Shown here piece by piece: positions 1,941-17,432 of a stretch of 20,171 nucleotides of DNA. The stretch lies in IMG/VR virus record IMGVR_UViG_3300047171_000142, positions 1 to 20,171 of that record; one strand, given 5' to 3'. The DNA comes from a virus. Every line of letters begins with the position of its first letter. Within the stretch, counting starts at the first letter, position 1. The notes under the pieces were generated by a model. The model did no database searches. It was not told where the DNA came from and worked only from the letters and a program-made list of their open reading frames with translations. Both the position numbers and the translations under genes were made by a program.

Positions 1941-2393
1941 ATGTCCCTCGCCGAAGCCAGCACTGTCGAACGCTTCGCCCACGAGCTTGCCGGCCCGGGG
2001 TTCGGCGATGCGCGCGATGATATGGCCGCGCGGTCGAGGCGCATGGGCGAGGTTGTGGACGAGGTGTTGGTGCGGATGGGGCCAAAGCCGGGTCAGAGCG
2101 AGTCGGAGAGAGCGCGCAATTTGGCCTTGGTGGAGGGCCTCGCGGCGCTGATGACCTCCGGTCTCGATGTCCTGCGCGACAATCTCGACGCCATGGACCC
2201 CGAAGGCGAGACGTTCGATCTCGCGGTGGCGGCCTATGACGACACGGTGCGCGAATATGAGCGGCTGAAGATCCTGGCTATCGCGCTTGATCCTCTGGCG
2301 AACGCTGGTCCTGATGCCCCTGTTCTCGACAGCGCGGCCGCCATCGATGCGTGGTCGGAGCGGCTGTTTACGGGTCTTGACGCCCGAGGTTAA
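1941..2393 (+). CDS. Hypothetical helical acidic protein, candidate antitoxin
   Basis: I do not recognise the family of this 150-residue protein. It is acidic, looks helical throughout, and has no membrane segment or recognisable DNA-binding motif. The C-terminal half carries 'YDDTVREYERLKILAIALDP'. The ATG at 1941 is preceded closely by GAGG. Its stop overlaps the start region of the RelE-like toxin downstream by about 17 bases, the tight coupling typical of type II toxin-antitoxin pairs. From that context it is the best candidate for the antitoxin, but nothing in its own sequence proves it. It could equally be an unrelated accessory gene. It sits between portal and scaffold, where P22-like phages normally have no gene of this kind. 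Confidence 0.6.
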   Translation: MSLAEASTVERFAHELAGPGFGDARDDMAARSRRMGEVVDEVLVRMGPKPGQSESERARNLALVEGLAALMTSGLDVLRDNLDAMDPEGETFDLAVAAYDDTVREYERLKILAIALDPLANAGPDAPVLDSAAAIDAWSERLFTGLDARG

Positions 2394-2652
2394 AGCGAGC
2401 CGGAGGTTTGAGCGCGCCTTCGCCAAATGGGGCGCGGGCGCTTCCGTGCGACGCGAGCAGGCCATTCGGGCGATAAAGCAATTCGTCGCGGATCCGGACC
2501 ATCCGAGTTTGAATTTCGAGCGGCTGGCCGGCTCCGACCTTTTTTCCATCCGCGTCAATCGTGGCGACCGCATCATTCTGAGACGGCTCGACGGGGATTC
2601 ATTTGAACTCGTCGATCTGGGATCGCACGACATCTATCGCAGGTATCCTTGA
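2377..2652 (+). CDS. RelE/ParE-superfamily toxin
   Basis: This is a 91-residue protein of the RelE type, a family of small toxins many of which cut mRNA on the ribosome. Supporting motifs are 'FERAFAKWG' near the N terminus, 'HPSLNFERLAGSDLFSIRVN' in the middle (the core strand with SIRVN), then 'DRIILRR' and 'FELVDLGSHDIYRRYP' at the end, where RelE proteins keep catalytic basic and aromatic residues. I chose the TTG at 2377, which gives the usual family N terminus. An in-frame ATG at 2347 would add ten residues. It overlaps the upstream 150-residue gene, its likely antitoxin. A REP-like repeat begins about nine bases after its stop. The superfamily is clear. The mode of action (mRNA cleavage or gyrase poisoning) is not settled by sequence. 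Confidence 0.75.
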   Translation: MTPEVKASRRFERAFAKWGAGASVRREQAIRAIKQFVADPDHPSLNFERLAGSDLFSIRVNRGDRIILRRLDGDSFELVDLGSHDIYRRYP

Positions 2653-2660
2653 GCATCCGA

Positions 2661-2722
2661 AATCGCGCCCAGTCACCTGGGTCCCGCATCTTCGCTGCGC
2701 TTCGTGCGGGATGACGGGGAGG
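2661..2722 (-). repeat. REP-like palindromic unit, family 1, left of GIY-YIG gene
   Basis: Read on the minus strand this runs CCCGTCATCCCGCA, a loop containing GAAGCGCAGCGAAG, TGCGGGACCCAGG, then ACTGGGCGCGATT. It holds two stems: TCCCGCA pairing with TGCGGGA, and CCCAG pairing with CTGGG. It overlaps the 3' end of the GIY-YIG gene and supplies its last codons and stop. It is an inverted counterpart of the unit at 3091-3146. Confidence 0.8.
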
Positions 2723-3090: not shown

Positions 3091-3146
3091 CCGTCATCCC
3101 GCGCGCAGCGAAGCGGAGACGCGGGACCCAGGGGACTGGGTGCGAT
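3091..3146 (+). repeat. REP-like palindromic unit, family 1, right of GIY-YIG gene
   Basis: CCGTCATCCCGCG starts at 3091, followed by a loop with GCAGCGAAGCGGAGA, CGCGGGACCCAGGGG, and ACTGGGTGCGATG. It has the same two-stem design as the unit at 2661-2722 but opposite orientation. It begins 16 bases upstream of the GIY-YIG start codon, so the nuclease gene fills the whole interval between the two units. Confidence 0.8.
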
Positions 3147-3224
3147 GATTGCAAGTCGACCCCGCCGCCGGGGGTAACGGGCGTTACGGGCCGCCACCGT
3201 GTGGGCGAAATAGGAAACACCAAC

Positions 3225-3908
3225 ATGGATAAGGACGATTTGGCCTCCCTCATTGAGGGGGAGCCTGAAGGCGTGGCCGAAGAGGAAACTCCGGTCACGG
3301 AGCAGCCGGCGGCGGAGCGACAAGAGGCGGGCGAGACGCCCACCCTCCAAGTGACGCCGCCACCCACCCAACCAGAACCTGGTCACGTTCCCGTGGCCGC
3401 GCTTTTGGATGAGCGGGATAAGCGCAAGGCTCTGGAGAAGCGCCTGGCCGATATTGAGGCCGAGCGGAAAATCGAGGGTCCGGCGCCGGAGCCGACCACC
3501 GCCCAGCAGATGTGGGCGCTGCGGATGGATGTCTCGCGGGAGCTGATGGTCAGTCAGCACGGCGAGGAAGAAGCCAAGGCGCTACATGAGTGGGGGGAGG
3601 CGAGGTGCGGGTCTGATCCGCACTTCAATGCTCAGGTCTATGCCTCGAAGAATCCGTACGCGTTCATTCGTCAGGCCCGCCAACGCGAGCAATTGCTCGC
3701 CGAGGTGAGCCCGGACGAGTTGGATGACTACAAGGCGTGGCGGGCCTCCCGTTCGGCGCCGAAAGAGGCGGGCGGGACGCCCACCCTCCAACCGACGCCG
3801 ACCCCGCCCAGATCCCTGGCCAACGCCCCGAACGCCGGCGGGGCCGGAGCCCAGGCGGAAACGCCGCTGGGGCCCGGCGCGGCTTTTGCTCAGACGATCC
3901 GACGTTAG
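3225..3908 (+). CDS. Putative capsid scaffolding protein
   Basis: Position between portal and major capsid protein, a hydrophilic acidic composition, and central coiled-coil helices ('ALLDERDKRKALEKRLADIE' around residue 80) point to the scaffold that guides procapsid assembly and then leaves. From the ATG at 3225, with AGGAAA seven bases upstream, the product is 227 residues; an upstream GTG frame to 3201 has no better site. The helix-rich middle runs from about 70 to 185, flanked by Pro/Thr/Ala-rich linkers. Two linkers contain the same peptide, EAG(E/G)TPTLQ, near residues 34 and 181, encoded by two almost identical 27-base copies of a dispersed repeat. The C terminus is basic (TIRR), and scaffolds usually bind coat protein through a basic tail. 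The role is inferred mainly from position and composition. Confidence 0.72.
   Translation: MDKDDLASLIEGEPEGVAEEETPVTEQPAAERQEAGETPTLQVTPPPTQPEPGHVPVAALLDERDKRKALEKRLADIEAERKIEGPAPEPTTAQQMWALRMDVSRELMVSQHGEEEAKALHEWGEARCGSDPHFNAQVYASKNPYAFIRQARQREQLLAEVSPDELDDYKAWRASRSAPKEAGGTPTLQPTPTPPRSLANAPNAGGAGAQAETPLGPGAAFAQTIRR
3324..3350 (+). repeat. Repeat half-unit, family 3, inside scaffold gene
   Basis: GAGGCGGGCGAGACGCCC followed by ACCCTCCAA. It differs by one base from 3765-3791 and closely resembles the right arm of the inverted repeat at 9219-9245. It is read in frame as EAGETPTLQ. Confidence 0.6.
3765..3791 (+). repeat. Repeat half-unit, family 3, second copy inside scaffold gene
   Basis: GAGGCGGGCGGGACGCCC followed by ACCCTCCAA, in the same orientation and reading frame as 3324-3350, read as EAGGTPTLQ. 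One base separates the two copies over 27. Confidence 0.6.
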
Positions 3909-5310: not shown

Positions 5311-5781
5311 ATGTCGACCGCCTATACGACCGCGCTGTTCAATTCCAAGGTGGGCGCGTCCTCCGGGCACGGGCTCAGCCGGATGCATACCTCGCTCCAC
5401 GCCGTGTCCGGGAGCATTTCCACCTGGGCGGCGGGTGACACCATCGCCGTGGGCTATATCCCCCGCAACGCCATCGTCAGTAACGTGATCCTGAAGGCCG
5501 CGAGCCAGCTGGACAGCAATGGATCGCCGACCCTGGCCCTCGATGTCGGGGTCGTGGGAACCCCGCAGCTCTTCAAGGCCGCCGTGACCACGGTGGGCCG
5601 GGCCTCGGGCGCCAGCGTGGACACCACCAACACCGCCGCCGGCTATCTCTATCAGAACACCTCAGGCGCCGATCAGCAGGTGGTGATCACCGTCCACACC
5701 GCCGCCGCGACGGCGGTCGCCGGAACCCTGGAACTCGACGTGGAATATTATGTCGAGGATGTCGCCGGCGCGAACCCCTAG
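5311..5781 (+). CDS. Putative capsid decoration or minor structural protein
   Basis: This 156-residue protein directly follows the major capsid gene, where many phages encode a decoration or cement protein. It is rich in Ala, Ser, Thr, Gly and Val with alternating beta-strand patterns ('GTLELDVEYYVEDV' at the C terminus), has no membrane segment, and no catalytic motif is visible. The ATG at 5311 is preceded by GAAAGGAG at 5293-5300. I do not recognise a named family. The decoration role comes from position and the all-beta look only. It is separated from the capsid gene by a 154-base palindromic repeat, so its expression may differ from that of the capsid. Confidence 0.65.
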   Translation: MSTAYTTALFNSKVGASSGHGLSRMHTSLHAVSGSISTWAAGDTIAVGYIPRNAIVSNVILKAASQLDSNGSPTLALDVGVVGTPQLFKAAVTTVGRASGASVDTTNTAAGYLYQNTSGADQQVVITVHTAAATAVAGTLELDVEYYVEDVAGANP

Positions 5782-5792
5782 GGGCCGCCGCG

Positions 5793-6038
5793 GTGACCGT
5801 CGAGGATATCCGTCGCGTCGGCCAGCATTGGTTACAGGCGGTCACCACGGCGCTCGCCCTGGTGGCCGTCGCCCTGCTGGGCTGGACCGGATCGCAGCTC
5901 ATCGCCATGCGCGATGACATCCACAGCCTGAAGGACGCCCTGCCGAGCCTTCAGGCGCGGGTGGACCGCCTGGAGAGCCGCCAGGACAAGGTGATCGAGG
6001 TTCTTTACGATCAGATCGACCAGGATAAGCGCCCATGA
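5793..6038 (+). CDS. Small membrane coiled-coil protein of lysis region
   Basis: An 81-residue protein with one strongly hydrophobic segment ('ALALVAVALLGWTGSQLIAM', about residues 20-40) followed by a short coiled coil ('LKDALPSLQARVDRLESRQD') to the C terminus. It starts at GTG 5793, twelve bases after the preceding stop. Its stop overlaps the endolysin start (ATGA at 6035-6038), so the two are translationally coupled. A bitopic protein with a coiled-coil tail next to an endolysin could be an accessory holin, an antiholin or an inner-membrane spanin. No outer-membrane spanin partner is visible, so the spanin option is weaker. Confidence 0.7.
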   Translation: MTVEDIRRVGQHWLQAVTTALALVAVALLGWTGSQLIAMRDDIHSLKDALPSLQARVDRLESRQDKVIEVLYDQIDQDKRP

Positions 6039-6631
6039 CCACGCCCCTGCTTATCGCGGATCTGAAGCGGGACGAGGGCCTGCGGCTGGAGGCTTACCGG
6101 GACACGCGCGGCGTCTGGACCATCGGTTATGGCCACACCCCGGCGATGGAGGGCGCGGTCTGGACGCCGGAGGCCGCGGCGATCCAGCTGGCCGCCGATC
6201 TCGACCGGGTGCTGGCCGGGCTCGACCGGGAGATCGCCTGGTGGCGGGGCCTCGATGATGTCCGCCAGGATGCCCTGGCCAATATGGCGTTCAATCTGGG
6301 CGTCGGCGGGCTTCTGGAGTTCCGGCACATGCTGGAGGCCCTGGAGGCCGGTGATTGGCACACCGCCAGCGCCGCCATGCTGGTGAGCCACTGGGCCGCC
6401 GAGGTTGAAGACCGCGCCGAGCGCCTCGCCTTCATGATCCGCACGGGGACGCGGGCGTCCACGGCGCCCCACCTTTCCCCGTCATCCCGGCCAAGCGAAG
6501 CGCGAGCCGGGACCCAGGGGACCGGACCGCGCCTCGCAACGGCGAACCCAAACGCATCGCCCAGTCCTCTGGGTCCCGGATCCGCGCTGCGCTCCGTCCG
6601 GGATGACGATTTTGAAGATCAGGGATCAACA
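6035..6631 (+). CDS. GH24 endolysin (T4-lysozyme family), 3' end repeat-derived
   Basis: A muramidase that cleaves the glycan strands of peptidoglycan at lysis. The GH24 triad is intact in 'LKRDEGLRLEAYRDTRGVWT' followed by IGYGHT: Glu14, Asp23 and Thr29, with the 9- and 6-residue spacing of T4 lysozyme. The helical lobe has 'ALANMAFNLGVGGLLEF', and the domain ends at 'AERLAFMIRTGT' near residue 147. There is no signal peptide, so it should need a holin. No stop follows the domain. The frame runs through a REP-like inverted pair (6480-6609) and continues into the holin, giving a 338-residue frame that ends at 7051. I split the entry at the holin ATG. The true product may be lysozyme with a repeat-encoded tail fused to the holin. 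Confidence 0.85.
6480..6609. repeat. REP-like inverted pair, family 1, within endolysin-holin frame
   Basis: A forward unit starts with CGTCATCCCGG at 6480 and carries CGGGACCCAGGGGACCGG. An inverted unit ends with CCGGGATGACG at 6599-6609 and carries ATCGCCCAGTCCTCTGGG. The two units lie tail to tail around a spacer of about 30 bases. The whole piece lacks a stop codon in the endolysin frame and encodes a linker rich in Pro, Ser and Arg. Confidence 0.85.
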
Positions 6632-7051
6632 ATGACAGATACGCACACCCCCACCCCCATCCAGACCGCGACCCTCGACATGGCCCGCTCGGCGCTCATG
6701 GCGGCGGGAGCGATTCCCTTGGCCCATGGCCTGGCCACGGCGAGCCAGTGGCAGGCCATCGTGGGCGGGGTGATCGCCATCGGCTCGGCGGTGTGGTCCT
6801 ATCTCGCCGCCCATCCCTCGCGGACGAGCGCGCTGACGAGCCTCCTCGGCATGATCCGCAAAGGCGGTCAGGGCCCGGCCTGGAACGGCGATGTCACCGC
6901 CCTTGAGGCCGCCGTTCTGCCCCTCGTGGAAAAGGCCGTGGACGCCCGGATCAAGGCCCGCGCGGGCGTCCTCGCCGGGCCCGTCGATCTCGCCGCCAAC
7001 GCCGTGATCAAGGACGCGGCGGGCCAGGTGGTCAGCCACCTTCGTATTTAA
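6632..7051 (+). CDS. Pam3-gp28-like putative phage holin
   Basis: The 139-residue product starting at ATG 6632 has an N-terminal region like the Pam3-gp28 holin family. A first hydrophobic helix ('MARSALMAAGAIPLAHGLA', about residues 13-31) and a turn ('TASQWQ') precede a second helix ('AIVGGVIAIGSAVWSYLAAH', about 38-57). The C-terminal 80 residues are an extra helical, alanine-rich domain ('LPLVEKAVDARIKARAG'). Holins open the inner membrane so endolysin reaches the wall. The ATG has only a weak ribosome site (CAGGGA), and the frame is open into the upstream endolysin, so the holin may be made as a separate protein or as a fusion domain. Confidence 0.72.
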   Translation: MTDTHTPTPIQTATLDMARSALMAAGAIPLAHGLATASQWQAIVGGVIAIGSAVWSYLAAHPSRTSALTSLLGMIRKGGQGPAWNGDVTALEAAVLPLVEKAVDARIKARAGVLAGPVDLAANAVIKDAAGQVVSHLRI

Positions 7052-7159: not shown

Positions 7160-7549
7160 ATGTCCTGGTTCTCTGAATATGTCGGCGATCCCTTGAAGGC
7201 CCTGGTGGCCAAGGCCGCCGCCAGCCTGGATGCGGAGCTGAAGTCCTTGGCGGGACAGGTCGCCAAGGATTTGCCGCCCGCGCCCATTTCGGCCAGCGCC
7301 GAGACGGCGTTTGAAACCTCCCTCCAGACCGCCATGGATGTGGTGATCACCGACGCGGTGGGGGATATCCCCGTGGCCGGCGCCCTCCTCGCTCCTGAAG
7401 CCGTGGCGGCGGGCAATGCGGCCATCGACTATGCTGTGCAAAAGGGCGTGGCGGCGCTGAACAGCCTGGCCGCAACGGCGAAGGCGCAGCTCGCCAATTT
7501 CGCGGCCAAACCGGCCCCCACGGGCATCGCCCCCGGCGGCGTGGCCTAA
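7160..7549 (+). CDS. Hypothetical alanine-rich helical protein
   Basis: A 129-residue protein with a good ribosome site (GGAGA at 7149-7153, seven bases before the ATG). It begins 'MSWFSEYVGDPLKALVAKAA', is predicted helical and amphipathic with no clear membrane span, and ends in a short Pro/Gly tail. I do not recognise the family. Its Ala/Val/Asp-rich style resembles the C-terminal extension of the upstream holin, so a common origin is possible but unproven. It lies between lysis genes and the tail adaptor and stops six bases before the adaptor ATG, so it is probably co-translated with it. Confidence 0.6.
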   Translation: MSWFSEYVGDPLKALVAKAAASLDAELKSLAGQVAKDLPPAPISASAETAFETSLQTAMDVVITDAVGDIPVAGALLAPEAVAAGNAAIDYAVQKGVAALNSLAATAKAQLANFAAKPAPTGIAPGGVA

Positions 7550-8202: not shown

Positions 8203-8279
8203 TCCTGCAACTTCCATGGGACAAAGAGGGCGAGAGGTTCTAGTTTTTGCGCGTTGAAATCCGTCCGGAGGGTGCGCGG

Positions 8280-9149
8280 GTGGGGATGGCGAGCCTGATC
8301 GCGGCGCTGAGGCCTATCGCGTCGAAATCCCCCACCCTGTCGCGCCTCTATCGGCAATTCCGGGATGAACGCCTCTCGCGCCGGCCGCCCGTGCCGACGC
8401 CCCTCGGATTCAGGTTCGCGGGGCCCAAGGCCATGGAGGCCGGACGTTTTGAACCCGCCGAGACCCGGTTGGTGGCGGCTCTGGCGCCGCATTTCACCAC
8501 CGTGATCAATGTCGGGGCCAATGTCGGTTATTATTGCTGTCTGGCGCTCCAGGCCGGCAAGACGGTTGTCGCCTTCGAGCCCATGCCCCTCAACCAGCGG
8601 GCCCTGTATCGCAATATCCGGGCCAATGGCTGGGAGGGCCGGTTCGAATGTTACCCCATCGCCCTCTCCGACCGGGCGGGTCTGATGGACATCTATGGCG
8701 GCGGCACGGGCGCCAGCCTGATCGCGGGCTGGAGCGGTCAGACCTATTCCACCACCGTGCCGGTTTCGACCCTGGATAGGGTTCTGGGCGCGCGTTTCGA
8801 TACCGCGCCGCGCCTGATCATCATCGATGTGGAGGGCGCTGAACTTGGTGTGCTGAAAGGCGCCTTGGGTTCACTTACCGCCCGGGTGCGACCGATCTGG
8901 TTGGTCGAGATCGAGATGACCAGCCACCAGCCCACGGGATCGCGGGTCAATCCGGATTTCATCAAGGTATTCGAGCTTTTCCATTCGTTGGGCTATGCCG
9001 CGCTCAGCGCGACCCTGCCGCCCCGGCCCGTGACGATGATGCAGGTGGAAGAGGCCATGCGCTCCGGCGTCAGCACCTTTGGCGCCCACAATTTCCTCTT
9101 CGTCGAGGCCTCGCGCCGGGACGAGATCGCCGCCGTCCTCCGCGTCTGA
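8280..9149 (+). CDS. FkbM-family methyltransferase
   Basis: A SAM-dependent methyltransferase of the FkbM family, whose members commonly O-methylate sugars in polysaccharides or natural products. The SAM-binding motif I is 'TVINVGANVGYYCCLALQAG'. The acidic residue for ribose follows in 'VVAFEPMPLNQRALYRNI', and the family motifs 'APRLIIIDVEGAELGVLKGA' and 'PIWLVEIEM' follow. I chose GTG 8280, with GGAGGG seven bases upstream (289 residues). ATG 8286 and an upstream TTG 8247 are alternatives. With the tailspike and polymerase downstream it forms a polysaccharide-related cassette inserted between two adaptor genes. Methylation of the host O-antigen or capsule by the lysogen is a reasonable inference. 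The substrate is unknown. Confidence 0.87.
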   Translation: MGMASLIAALRPIASKSPTLSRLYRQFRDERLSRRPPVPTPLGFRFAGPKAMEAGRFEPAETRLVAALAPHFTTVINVGANVGYYCCLALQAGKTVVAFEPMPLNQRALYRNIRANGWEGRFECYPIALSDRAGLMDIYGGGTGASLIAGWSGQTYSTTVPVSTLDRVLGARFDTAPRLIIIDVEGAELGVLKGALGSLTARVRPIWLVEIEMTSHQPTGSRVNPDFIKVFELFHSLGYAALSATLPPRPVTMMQVEEAMRSGVSTFGAHNFLFVEASRRDEIAAVLRV

Positions 9150-13876: not shown

Positions 13877-14119
13877 ATGGATCGTATGATTATCGTGAAA
13901 GCGATTTTCGATCCCGAGGCCCGCGTTTGGTACACCGAATCCAGCGATGTTCACGGTCTTCGGCTTGAAGATGCGAGGCTGGAAACCCTCGTGGATCGCA
14001 TCCCGGGCGCCATTCAGGACCTGCTTGAGTTCGGGTCAGATGGCGATGGCGAGATCGACATTCCCGTCGAGGTGATCGCCAACGCCACCACCCGCGTGAG
14101 GCGACTGGCGGCTGCTTGA
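13877..14119 (+). CDS. hicB: HicB-like antitoxin (DUF1902 type)
   Basis: An 80-residue antitoxin of the short HicB/DUF1902 group. 'VKAIFDPEARVWYTESSDVH' followed by GLRLE is the ferredoxin-like strand pattern of the family, and 'TLVDRIPGAIQDLLEFG' is the following helix. It lacks the extra C-terminal helix-turn-helix or ribbon-helix-helix domain of longer HicBs, so DNA binding, if any, would need another surface. AAGGAG lies ten bases before the ATG. The stop overlaps the toxin start by four bases (TTGA). The antitoxin-first order is less common than hicAB. It should neutralise the adjacent HicA by binding it. Confidence 0.87.
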   Translation: MDRMIIVKAIFDPEARVWYTESSDVHGLRLEDARLETLVDRIPGAIQDLLEFGSDGDGEIDIPVEVIANATTRVRRLAAA

Positions 14120-14307
14120 ACTACACGCGGCTCGTAAAACAGAAATTGGGCGACGCTGGGTGCTGGTTCGTCCGACAGGGACGCGGTGATCACGAGATTT
14201 GGGAAAGCCCGATCAACGGCAAACGATTCACCGTGGATGGGAGCATCCTGTCACGCCACACGGCTAACGGGACATTGAAGGACGCGGGACTGCCCAAGGC
14301 GTTCTGA
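14116..14307 (+). CDS. hicA: HicA-like mRNA interferase toxin
   Basis: A 63-residue toxin with the HicA double-stranded-RNA-binding-like fold. It has 'LVKQKLGDAGCWFVRQGRGD' followed by HEIW with the conserved catalytic His26, then 'RFTVDGSILSRHTANGTLKD' and AGLP at the C terminus. It cleaves mRNA when free of HicB. It starts at TTG 14116 inside the end of hicB, so translation is coupled. All expected motifs are present and the module looks functional. It lies amid late structural genes, between adaptor and gp10-like genes. Confidence 0.9.
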   Translation: MNYTRLVKQKLGDAGCWFVRQGRGDHEIWESPINGKRFTVDGSILSRHTANGTLKDAGLPKAF

Positions 14308-17267: not shown

Positions 17268-17397
17268 CCCCGTCATCCCGCACGAAGCGCAGCGAAGATG
17301 CGGGACTCAGGGGATCAGTTGCGATGCGTGGGTTCGTGAACCGCGGAATCGCATCCAGTCCCCTGGGTCGGTTCGCTTCGCGCCCCGGGATGACGGG
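17268..17397. repeat. REP-like inverted pair, family 1, upstream of fibre gene
   Basis: A forward unit starts CCCCGTCATCCCG (17268-17280) and has GAAGCGCAGCGAAGATGCGG and a CAGGGGATCAG tail. An inverted unit ends CGGGATGACGGG (17386-17397) and has GAATCGCATCCAGTCCCC. Tails face each other, as at 6480-6609. The pair fills the gap between the two fibre genes. Confidence 0.85.
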
Positions 17398-17432
17398 TAA
17401 GGGTAAGCCCGGGTTTTGAGAGAGATCACGAT

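What the first reader, a model, noticed from the sequence alone, without database searches (positions are those of the whole stretch)
6440..6660. Repeat pair joins endolysin to holin in one open frame
The GH24 domain ends near 6475 with no stop; an inverted repeat pair (6480-6609) without in-frame stops leads straight to the holin ATG at 6632 in the same frame. The insertion probably removed the endolysin stop and created a 338-residue lysozyme-linker-holin frame. A soluble lysozyme tethered to its holin could change lysis timing, or the lysis unit may be non-functional. The strong hairpin could also limit holin translation.
Basis: partly seen in the sequence, partly recalled or inferred. Interest (0 to 1): 0.62.

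Follow-up and report, generated by a model that had tools for sequence, protein, structure and literature searches.

The report
Phage lysozyme fused to its holin
In a group of uncultured, probably Caulobacter-type phages, the enzyme that digests the host cell wall and the protein that opens the host membrane are read as one continuous protein, joined by spacer DNA that in most members comes from palindromic repeats; this seems to have happened more than once, so a joined lysis protein looks kept rather than broken.

Summary
ORF 6035-7051 (338 aa) runs from a GH24 lysozyme (catalytic E14/D23/T29 intact) through a 174-nt linker, mostly one 130-nt palindromic repeat, into a Pam3 gp28-type holin, without a stop. 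It is no assembly error or wreck. Five relatives from four metagenomes have the same fusion. Both domains are under purifying selection (dN/dS 0.10-0.24); the linker is not (about 0.7-1.4). The frame is kept nonetheless: linkers are 174 nt in four members, 102 in one (a different repeat) and 255 in one (two extra insertions, 57 and 24 nt). Sister phages keep the two genes separate with ATGA overlaps. Fusion arose more than once: a second GH24 lineage (contig ends just after the holin ATG) and a glucosaminidase endolysin are also joined to this holin. Published neighbours are endolysins with C-terminal membrane domains (Enc34, M4Lys, LysAP) and one holin-first fusion in Clostridium sporogenes. 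I found no repeat-built endolysin-first fusion in named phages or in my paper searches. Best reading: a real, maintained membrane-tethered lysozyme-holin whose linker sequence hardly matters, probably with free holin also made from the conserved internal ATG. Protein products are untested.

The parts
6035..7051 (+). single ORF, 338 aa: GH24 lysozyme - linker - Pam3 gp28-type holin
6035..6457 (+). GH24 (Phage_lysozyme) endolysin part, residues 1-141, E14/D23/T29 present
   Evidence: dN/dS 0.15-0.24
6458..6631 (+). linker, 58 codons, Ser/Pro/Ala-rich, open in frame
   Evidence: pair dN/dS 0.7-1.4 among the five members with the same element
6480..6609 (.). two-headed palindromic (BIME-like) repeat, 130 nt
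6621..6623 (+). weak Shine-Dalgarno-like AGG 8 nt before the holin ATG (L007, L008, L009 have AGGA and L010 AAGGA there)
   Evidence: 68% of shuffles do as well for the window itself
6632..7051 (+). holin part; ATG (M200) conserved in all six aligned fusions and still usable as an internal start
   Evidence: dN/dS 0.10-0.21
5793..6038 (+). 81-aa protein with one hydrophobic stretch (Rz-like hits not significant); its stop overlaps the lysozyme ATG (ATGA)
7160..7549 (+). conserved downstream gene of unknown function; used as anchor to find relatives
17271..17400 (-). second full-length copy of the same repeat, intergenic
2669..2720 (-). half copy of the repeat, intergenic
3091..3139 (+). half copy of the repeat, intergenic

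Best explanation
The ORF encodes a real, maintained endolysin-holin fusion: a cytoplasmic GH24 lysozyme tied by a flexible, sequence-indifferent linker to the N-terminus of a Pam3 gp28-type holin. Shown: in sister phages the two genes are separate and overlap by ATGA; in the window's group the stop is gone and linkers of 102, 174 or 255 nt, built from at least two palindromic repeat families, keep the frame; similar fusions exist with other endolysins. Inferred: the product sits on the inner membrane; when the holin part triggers, the lesion lets the tethered enzyme (or enzyme freed by proteolysis in the linker) reach peptidoglycan, as for endolysins with C-terminal membrane domains. Free holin is probably also made from the conserved ATG at 6632.
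For: Six contigs (window, L007, L008, L009, L010, L011; the five relatives come from four metagenomes) have one frame. Lysozyme dN/dS 0.15-0.24 and holin 0.10-0.21 in all 15 pairs, with E/D/T intact. Linker lengths 174 x4, 102, 255 are all multiples of 3; L011's two extra insertions are 57 and 24 nt. The neighbouring spacer after the holin is 108, 23, 173, 203 and 24 nt in the five members where it could be measured, so it is not held to threes. The frame that would restore the ancestral ATGA ending is also open in 5 of 6, yet none uses it. Repeated gain: the capsid-protein tree needs at least 3 changes of state on starred branches and the lysozyme tree at least 2; glucosaminidase L187 is fused while its relative L188 is not.
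Against: Four of the six share one 174-nt linker by descent, so few events are independent: three length changes all divisible by 3 would happen by chance in 1 of 27. Random substitution leaves the linker open 45% of the time after 30 changes, so absence of stops is weak. The linker is not conserved as protein. On the holin tree one origin of fusion is not excluded. L016 ends a few codons into the holin. No product size, activity or membrane topology was measured; AlphaFold models of the fusion and of the holin were unusable (mean pLDDT 35 and 47). No proteolytic site was sought.
Confidence: 0.6

Rival explanations
1. Tolerated accident: a repeat landed at the ATGA junction and happened to join the frames (1 in 3). 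Holin is made from its own start, the tail on the lysozyme is harmless, and nothing selects for the fusion.
For: Linker evolves as DNA, not protein (dN/dS about 1, and dS lower than in the domains). Repeats land between genes elsewhere in these phages. Holin ATG and a weak SD-like motif persist. One open linker is not improbable.
Against: All length changes keep the frame, while the next spacer does not. Different endolysins are fused to the same holin. The fusion ties every full-length lysozyme molecule to a membrane protein, which is unlikely to be without effect (inference).
Confidence: 0.24
2. Open frame needed for translation only: ribosomes must pass through the strong hairpin to expose the holin start, so stops in the repeat are selected against, but the fusion protein is a by-product.
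For: The hairpin is strong (L010's different repeat also folds, z -3.8). The junction of the sister phages is of the translationally coupled ATGA type.
Against: Another open frame through the repeat ends exactly at the ATGA and would keep coupling without fusion; 5 of 6 members have it open and none uses it. L187 is fused with a six-residue linker without repeat. SD-like motif and ATG lie outside the hairpin in the centroid fold.
Confidence: 0.12
3. The lysis unit is broken, or the open frame is a sequencing error.
For: Only the general unusualness of a lysozyme tied to its holin.
Against: Purifying selection on both parts, intact catalytic residues, five further contigs with the same frame.
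Confidence: 0.03

Closest known systems
Endolysins with a C-terminal transmembrane domain (Siskin, Enc34 ORF39, M4Lys of BSPM4, LysAP of AP1)
   Same: Enzyme first, membrane helices last. In M4Lys and LysAP the membrane part is needed for lysis (passages, abstracts included, of PMC7143992, PMC8943055, PMC8879335 and PMC6498227).
   Different: In the passages read, the membrane part is not described as a member of a holin family and a separate holin gene exists. Here the C-terminal part is a recognisable holin (PF23987) with separate-gene orthologues in sister phages, the enzyme is GH24 (glucosaminidase in L187), and the linker in the window's group comes from palindromic repeats.
Natural holin-endolysin fusion of Clostridium sporogenes (TpeE family)
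   Same: Holin and endolysin in one natural chain; proposed one-shot translocation (passages of PMC9527704).
   Different: Opposite order (holin first), a different holin family, no repeat linker mentioned, six isolates of one species.
Rickettsia palindromic elements and other ORF-carrying bacterial MITEs
   Same: Palindromic repeats of about 100-150 nt read in frame inside genes, with a neutral or slight effect in the one protein tested (review PMC2229807, passages).
   Different: Other host group; sequence kinship not tested. Here the element lies between two genes and joins them, in a phage.
CIR repeats of Caulobacter
   Same: Intergenic palindromic repeats of Caulobacter and relatives, about 110 nt.
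   Different: No GANTC in this element and two open frames. CIRs are said to carry stops in all frames and not to lie in genes.

Membership tests
Phage_lysozyme / GH24 endolysin (PF00959) | profile match above cut-off | tested here: met
   67.8 bits vs 22.3
Phage_lysozyme / GH24 endolysin (PF00959) | catalytic Glu-Asp-Thr with T4-like spacing (T4 numbering recalled) | tested here: met
   E14/D23/T29 in all nine GH24 members checked
Phage_holin_10, Pam3 gp28 holin (PF23987) | profile match above cut-off | tested here: met
   32.7 bits vs 27
Phage_holin_10, Pam3 gp28 holin (PF23987) | membrane-permeabilising activity | not testable with these tools
   hydropathy shows one clear (from residue 241) and one weak (from 212) hydrophobic stretch
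Endolysin with C-terminal transmembrane domain | N-terminal enzyme and C-terminal membrane helix or helices | tested here: met
   domain order, hydropathy; topology not measured
Endolysin with C-terminal transmembrane domain | PHA02564 catalytic domain (Enc34/chi-like group) | tested here: not met
   catalytic part is PF00959
Endolysin with C-terminal transmembrane domain | lysis on expression alone, lost when the membrane part is removed | not testable with these tools
   needs expression in a laboratory strain
SAR endolysin | N-terminal membrane-exiting helix | tested here: not met
   no 19-residue window above 1.0 hydropathy before residue 212
Holin-endolysin fusion, C. sporogenes type | holin N-terminal to endolysin | tested here: not met
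   order is endolysin then holin
CIR repeat | GANTC site and stops in all frames | tested here: not met
   0 GANTC; two open frames
Protein-coding palindromic element (RPE-like in behaviour) | palindromic repeat read in frame inside a protein gene and present elsewhere in the genome | tested here: met
Protein-coding palindromic element (RPE-like in behaviour) | sequence kinship with Rickettsia RPE | not tested
   no RPE sequence was compared
RAYT-linked REP element | Y1 transposase in genomes rich in the repeat | tested here: not met
   PF01797 in 0 of 3 repeat-rich genomes; the control genomes ring in 5 of 14

The most novel reading that the evidence does not exclude
A phage family repeatedly turns its endolysin and holin into one protein, using palindromic repeats as ready-made flexible linkers. 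It makes two products from one gene: a tethered lysozyme-holin that acts as a built-in timer (antiholin-like, because the bulky N-terminus blocks the holin's first helix) and free holin from the internal ATG. This would also be a route by which endolysins with C-terminal membrane domains are born.
Probability: 0.22. Interest if true: 0.8.

Novelty: new variant of a known kind. Interest (0 to 1): 0.6.

Why it matters
The textbook holin-endolysin scheme relies on the two proteins being separate: the enzyme waits in the cytoplasm and the holin sets the time. Natural fusions, apparently arising repeatedly and with different enzymes, would show that separation is dispensable in some phages and give a concrete system for testing how an N-terminal enzyme passes a membrane that its own C-terminus breaks, a question left open for Enc34-type endolysins. 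They also show palindromic repeats of host type acting as raw material for new protein linkers in a phage.

Tried and rejected
Led nowhere: the genome-contig scan with the whole fusion (0 relatives). The holin profile in 398 genomes of the order of L107 (a Caulobacter) gave 0 matches; the profile works on four phage records that hold this holin, two of which (L014, L017) were not in the profile, but no cellular positive control exists. tblastn of the fusion in 50,697 phage records: 0 with 80% coverage in one place; holin alone: none. AlphaFold of the fusion and of the holin too poor to use, so no fold search was run. RAYT transposase not found in the three genomes with the best full-length repeat copies.

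Considered and rejected: SAR endolysin (no N-terminal helix), CIR repeat (no GANTC, frames open), sequencing error (five concordant contigs), decay (purifying selection). Shine-Dalgarno evidence for the internal holin start is weak in single members (shuffles reach it in 2-68% of cases) and counts only as consistent.

Rows dropped: seven of the 23 records with a holin hit are duplicate views of the same contigs (L001, L003, L023, L024, L025, L189, L275), leaving 16; L073's hit is a 59-aa ORF not adjacent to its lysozyme. L012 and L021 end inside the lysozyme and say nothing on fusion. L016 counts as fused only as far as its contig goes. One search compares 15 pairs; for the linker, three pairs with L010 (whose linker is a different repeat and not truly alignable) gave no ratio and two gave 0.33 and 0.78; these L010 values I set aside.

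Full report
What is there. The window is an uncultured virus record of 20,171 bases with a P22-like set of genes: portal and major head protein, Phage_stabilise and a weak gp7-like match. ORF 6035-7051 is 338 codons without a stop. Residues 12-120 match Phage_lysozyme, and residues 211-258 match Phage_holin_10, the Pam3 gp28 holin family. Between them, 6480-6609 is a palindromic element: it matches its own reverse complement at 72%, each half also folds alone, and the RNA of the region folds with z -5.9. The holin ATG at 6632 is in frame with the lysozyme ATG.

Relatives. Scans of the viral collection gave L007, L008, L009, L010 and L011, with 80-87% protein identity to the window's fusion. 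All five have a single frame, of 338, 338, 340, 314 and 366 aa. L009 and L011 come back as L023 and L024 in the holin scan. The lysozyme is followed by a stop in L013, L014, L015, L017, L018 and L019 (141-157 aa). In L013 and L019 the stop TGA overlaps the holin ATG as ATGA. The window's lysozyme itself starts in an ATGA overlap with gene 5793-6038. So the ancestral lysis operon is most simply a chain of ATGA-coupled genes, and the fused state is derived; this is inference from the sisters.

Selection. Codon comparison over the 15 pairs of fused members gives dN/dS of 0.15-0.24 for the lysozyme and 0.10-0.21 for the holin. For the linker, the ten pairs among the five members with the BIME-like element give 0.7-1.4 (0.5-1.7 for the repeat part alone); the five pairs with L010, whose linker is a different repeat, give no value in three and 0.33 and 0.78 in two, and I set them aside as not truly alignable. 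Synonymous divergence in the linker is lower than in both domains in all ten pairs (for example 0.13 against 0.65 and 0.46 for window-L008), so the repeat is conserved, or renewed, as DNA. The palindrome in the right half keeps pairing through a change on both sides between the window and L007/L008. The spacer just after the holin is 108, 23, 173, 203 and 24 nt in the five members where it could be measured (L010 not found). Three length changes all divisible by three have a chance of 1 in 27; absence of stops adds little (45% after 30 random substitutions). The alternative open frame that runs through the linker to the ancestral ATGA would have separated the genes again; it is open in 5 of 6 and used by none. 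I read this as moderate, not conclusive, evidence that the fused frame is selected.

Repeated origin. A model of the holin run over all 276 records held at that point hit 23, which are 16 distinct contigs; lysin and holin lie in one ORF in 7 of 16 (window, L007-L011, L187). L187 carries a glucosaminidase endolysin (Pfam 2.5e-11) joined to this holin by a six-residue linker with no repeat, while the related glucosaminidase of L188 ends in an ATGA overlap with its holin; L186 has an unassigned ORF, also separate, before the holin. L016, whose GH24 lysozyme groups with the separate L019 (97/97 support), is open through a linker of about 25 residues into the holin ATG, but its contig ends a few codons later. 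On the capsid-protein tree starred branches force at least 3 changes between fused and separate; on the lysozyme tree at least 2; on the holin tree deep forks are unresolved and one origin is not excluded. Lysis genes are exchanged between these phages, so the capsid tree alone would not prove it; the pairs L187/L188 and L016/L019 are the cleaner argument.

The repeat. Full-length copies of the element occur in genomes of the order of L107 (Caulobacter sp. CCUG 60055): 31 of 200 match at 1e-8, some only over one half of the element, against 3 of 190 drawn from the class. In the window a second full copy lies at 17271-17400 and half copies at 2669-2720 and 3091-3139, all outside the likely genes of the ORF table. 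L010's linker is another repeat family, whose core occurs in frame in the scaffold-like ORF 3201-3908 of the window (3321-3348, 3763-3789, residues) and in L007, L009, L011 and L012. The host is probably a member of the Caulobacterales; this is inference from the repeats and from lysozymes of about 50% identity in Caulobacteraceae contigs, and this holin was not found in 398 genomes of that order.

How it may work. Hydropathy shows one clear membrane stretch (from about residue 241) and a weaker one before it (from 212); nothing N-terminal of residue 212 is hydrophobic enough for a signal or SAR helix. The simplest topology keeps the lysozyme in the cytoplasm, tied to the membrane. Lysis would then need the holin part to open a lesion large enough for the tethered enzyme, or cleavage in the linker. 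The conserved ATG (M200 in all six aligned fusions) with a weak SD-like motif leaves room for free holin made from the same mRNA. None of these steps was tested; AlphaFold gave no usable model.

What is known. Passages (abstracts included) read here describe endolysins with a C-terminal membrane domain in chi-like phages and in AP1 (PMC8943055, PMC7143992, PMC6498227, PMC8879335). For Enc34, how the N-terminal enzyme reaches the wall is said to be unknown. A natural holin-endolysin fusion is described for C. sporogenes, holin first (PMC9527704, passages). Engineered holin-endolysin fusions exist (PMC12817945, passages). In-frame palindromic elements are known from Rickettsia and enterobacteria, and from Wolbachia by a title in the reference list (PMC2229807, passages). 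My paper searches for endolysin-holin fusions and for palindromic repeats in phage or Caulobacter genes listed no endolysin-first fusion to a recognised holin and none with a repeat as linker; I opened only some of the listed papers, and the library lacks most subscription journals.

Verdict. A genuine and apparently recurrent natural endolysin-holin fusion, most likely functional, with a linker that in the window's group is built from palindromic repeats. It is a new variant of a known kind (endolysin with C-terminal membrane domain), unusual for its recognisable holin part, its repeat-derived linker and its repeated origin.

Noticed in passing
window 3201-3908 (3321-3348, 3763-3789): Scaffold-like ORF carries two in-frame copies of the repeat core that forms L010's lysis linker, so a second gene of this phage family has absorbed palindromic repeat sequence.
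   Followed up: partly
L008 3307-3440: A second full copy of the BIME-like element sits directly after the holin stop.
   Followed up: no
window 13877-14307: Overlapping small genes resembling a HicA/HicB-type toxin-antitoxin pair (DUF1902 1.6e-13; HicA_toxin 1.2e-5, just under its cut-off).
   Followed up: no
window 2287-2652: ParE-like toxin domain (PF24732, 2.8e-6) whose frame overlaps ORF 1941-2393.
   Followed up: no
window 8247-9149: FkbM-type methyltransferase among the virion genes (PF05050 1.5e-19; phrog_8156).
   Followed up: no
L017 and L018, about 5440-6160: About 700 nt of extra DNA, not identified, lies between lysozyme and holin where L014 and L015 have a short gap.
   Followed up: no
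L186, L187, L188, L013: The same holin stands behind different lysis enzymes (GH24, glucosaminidase, and an unassigned ORF in L186): the endolysin seems to be swapped as a module while the holin stays.
   Followed up: partly
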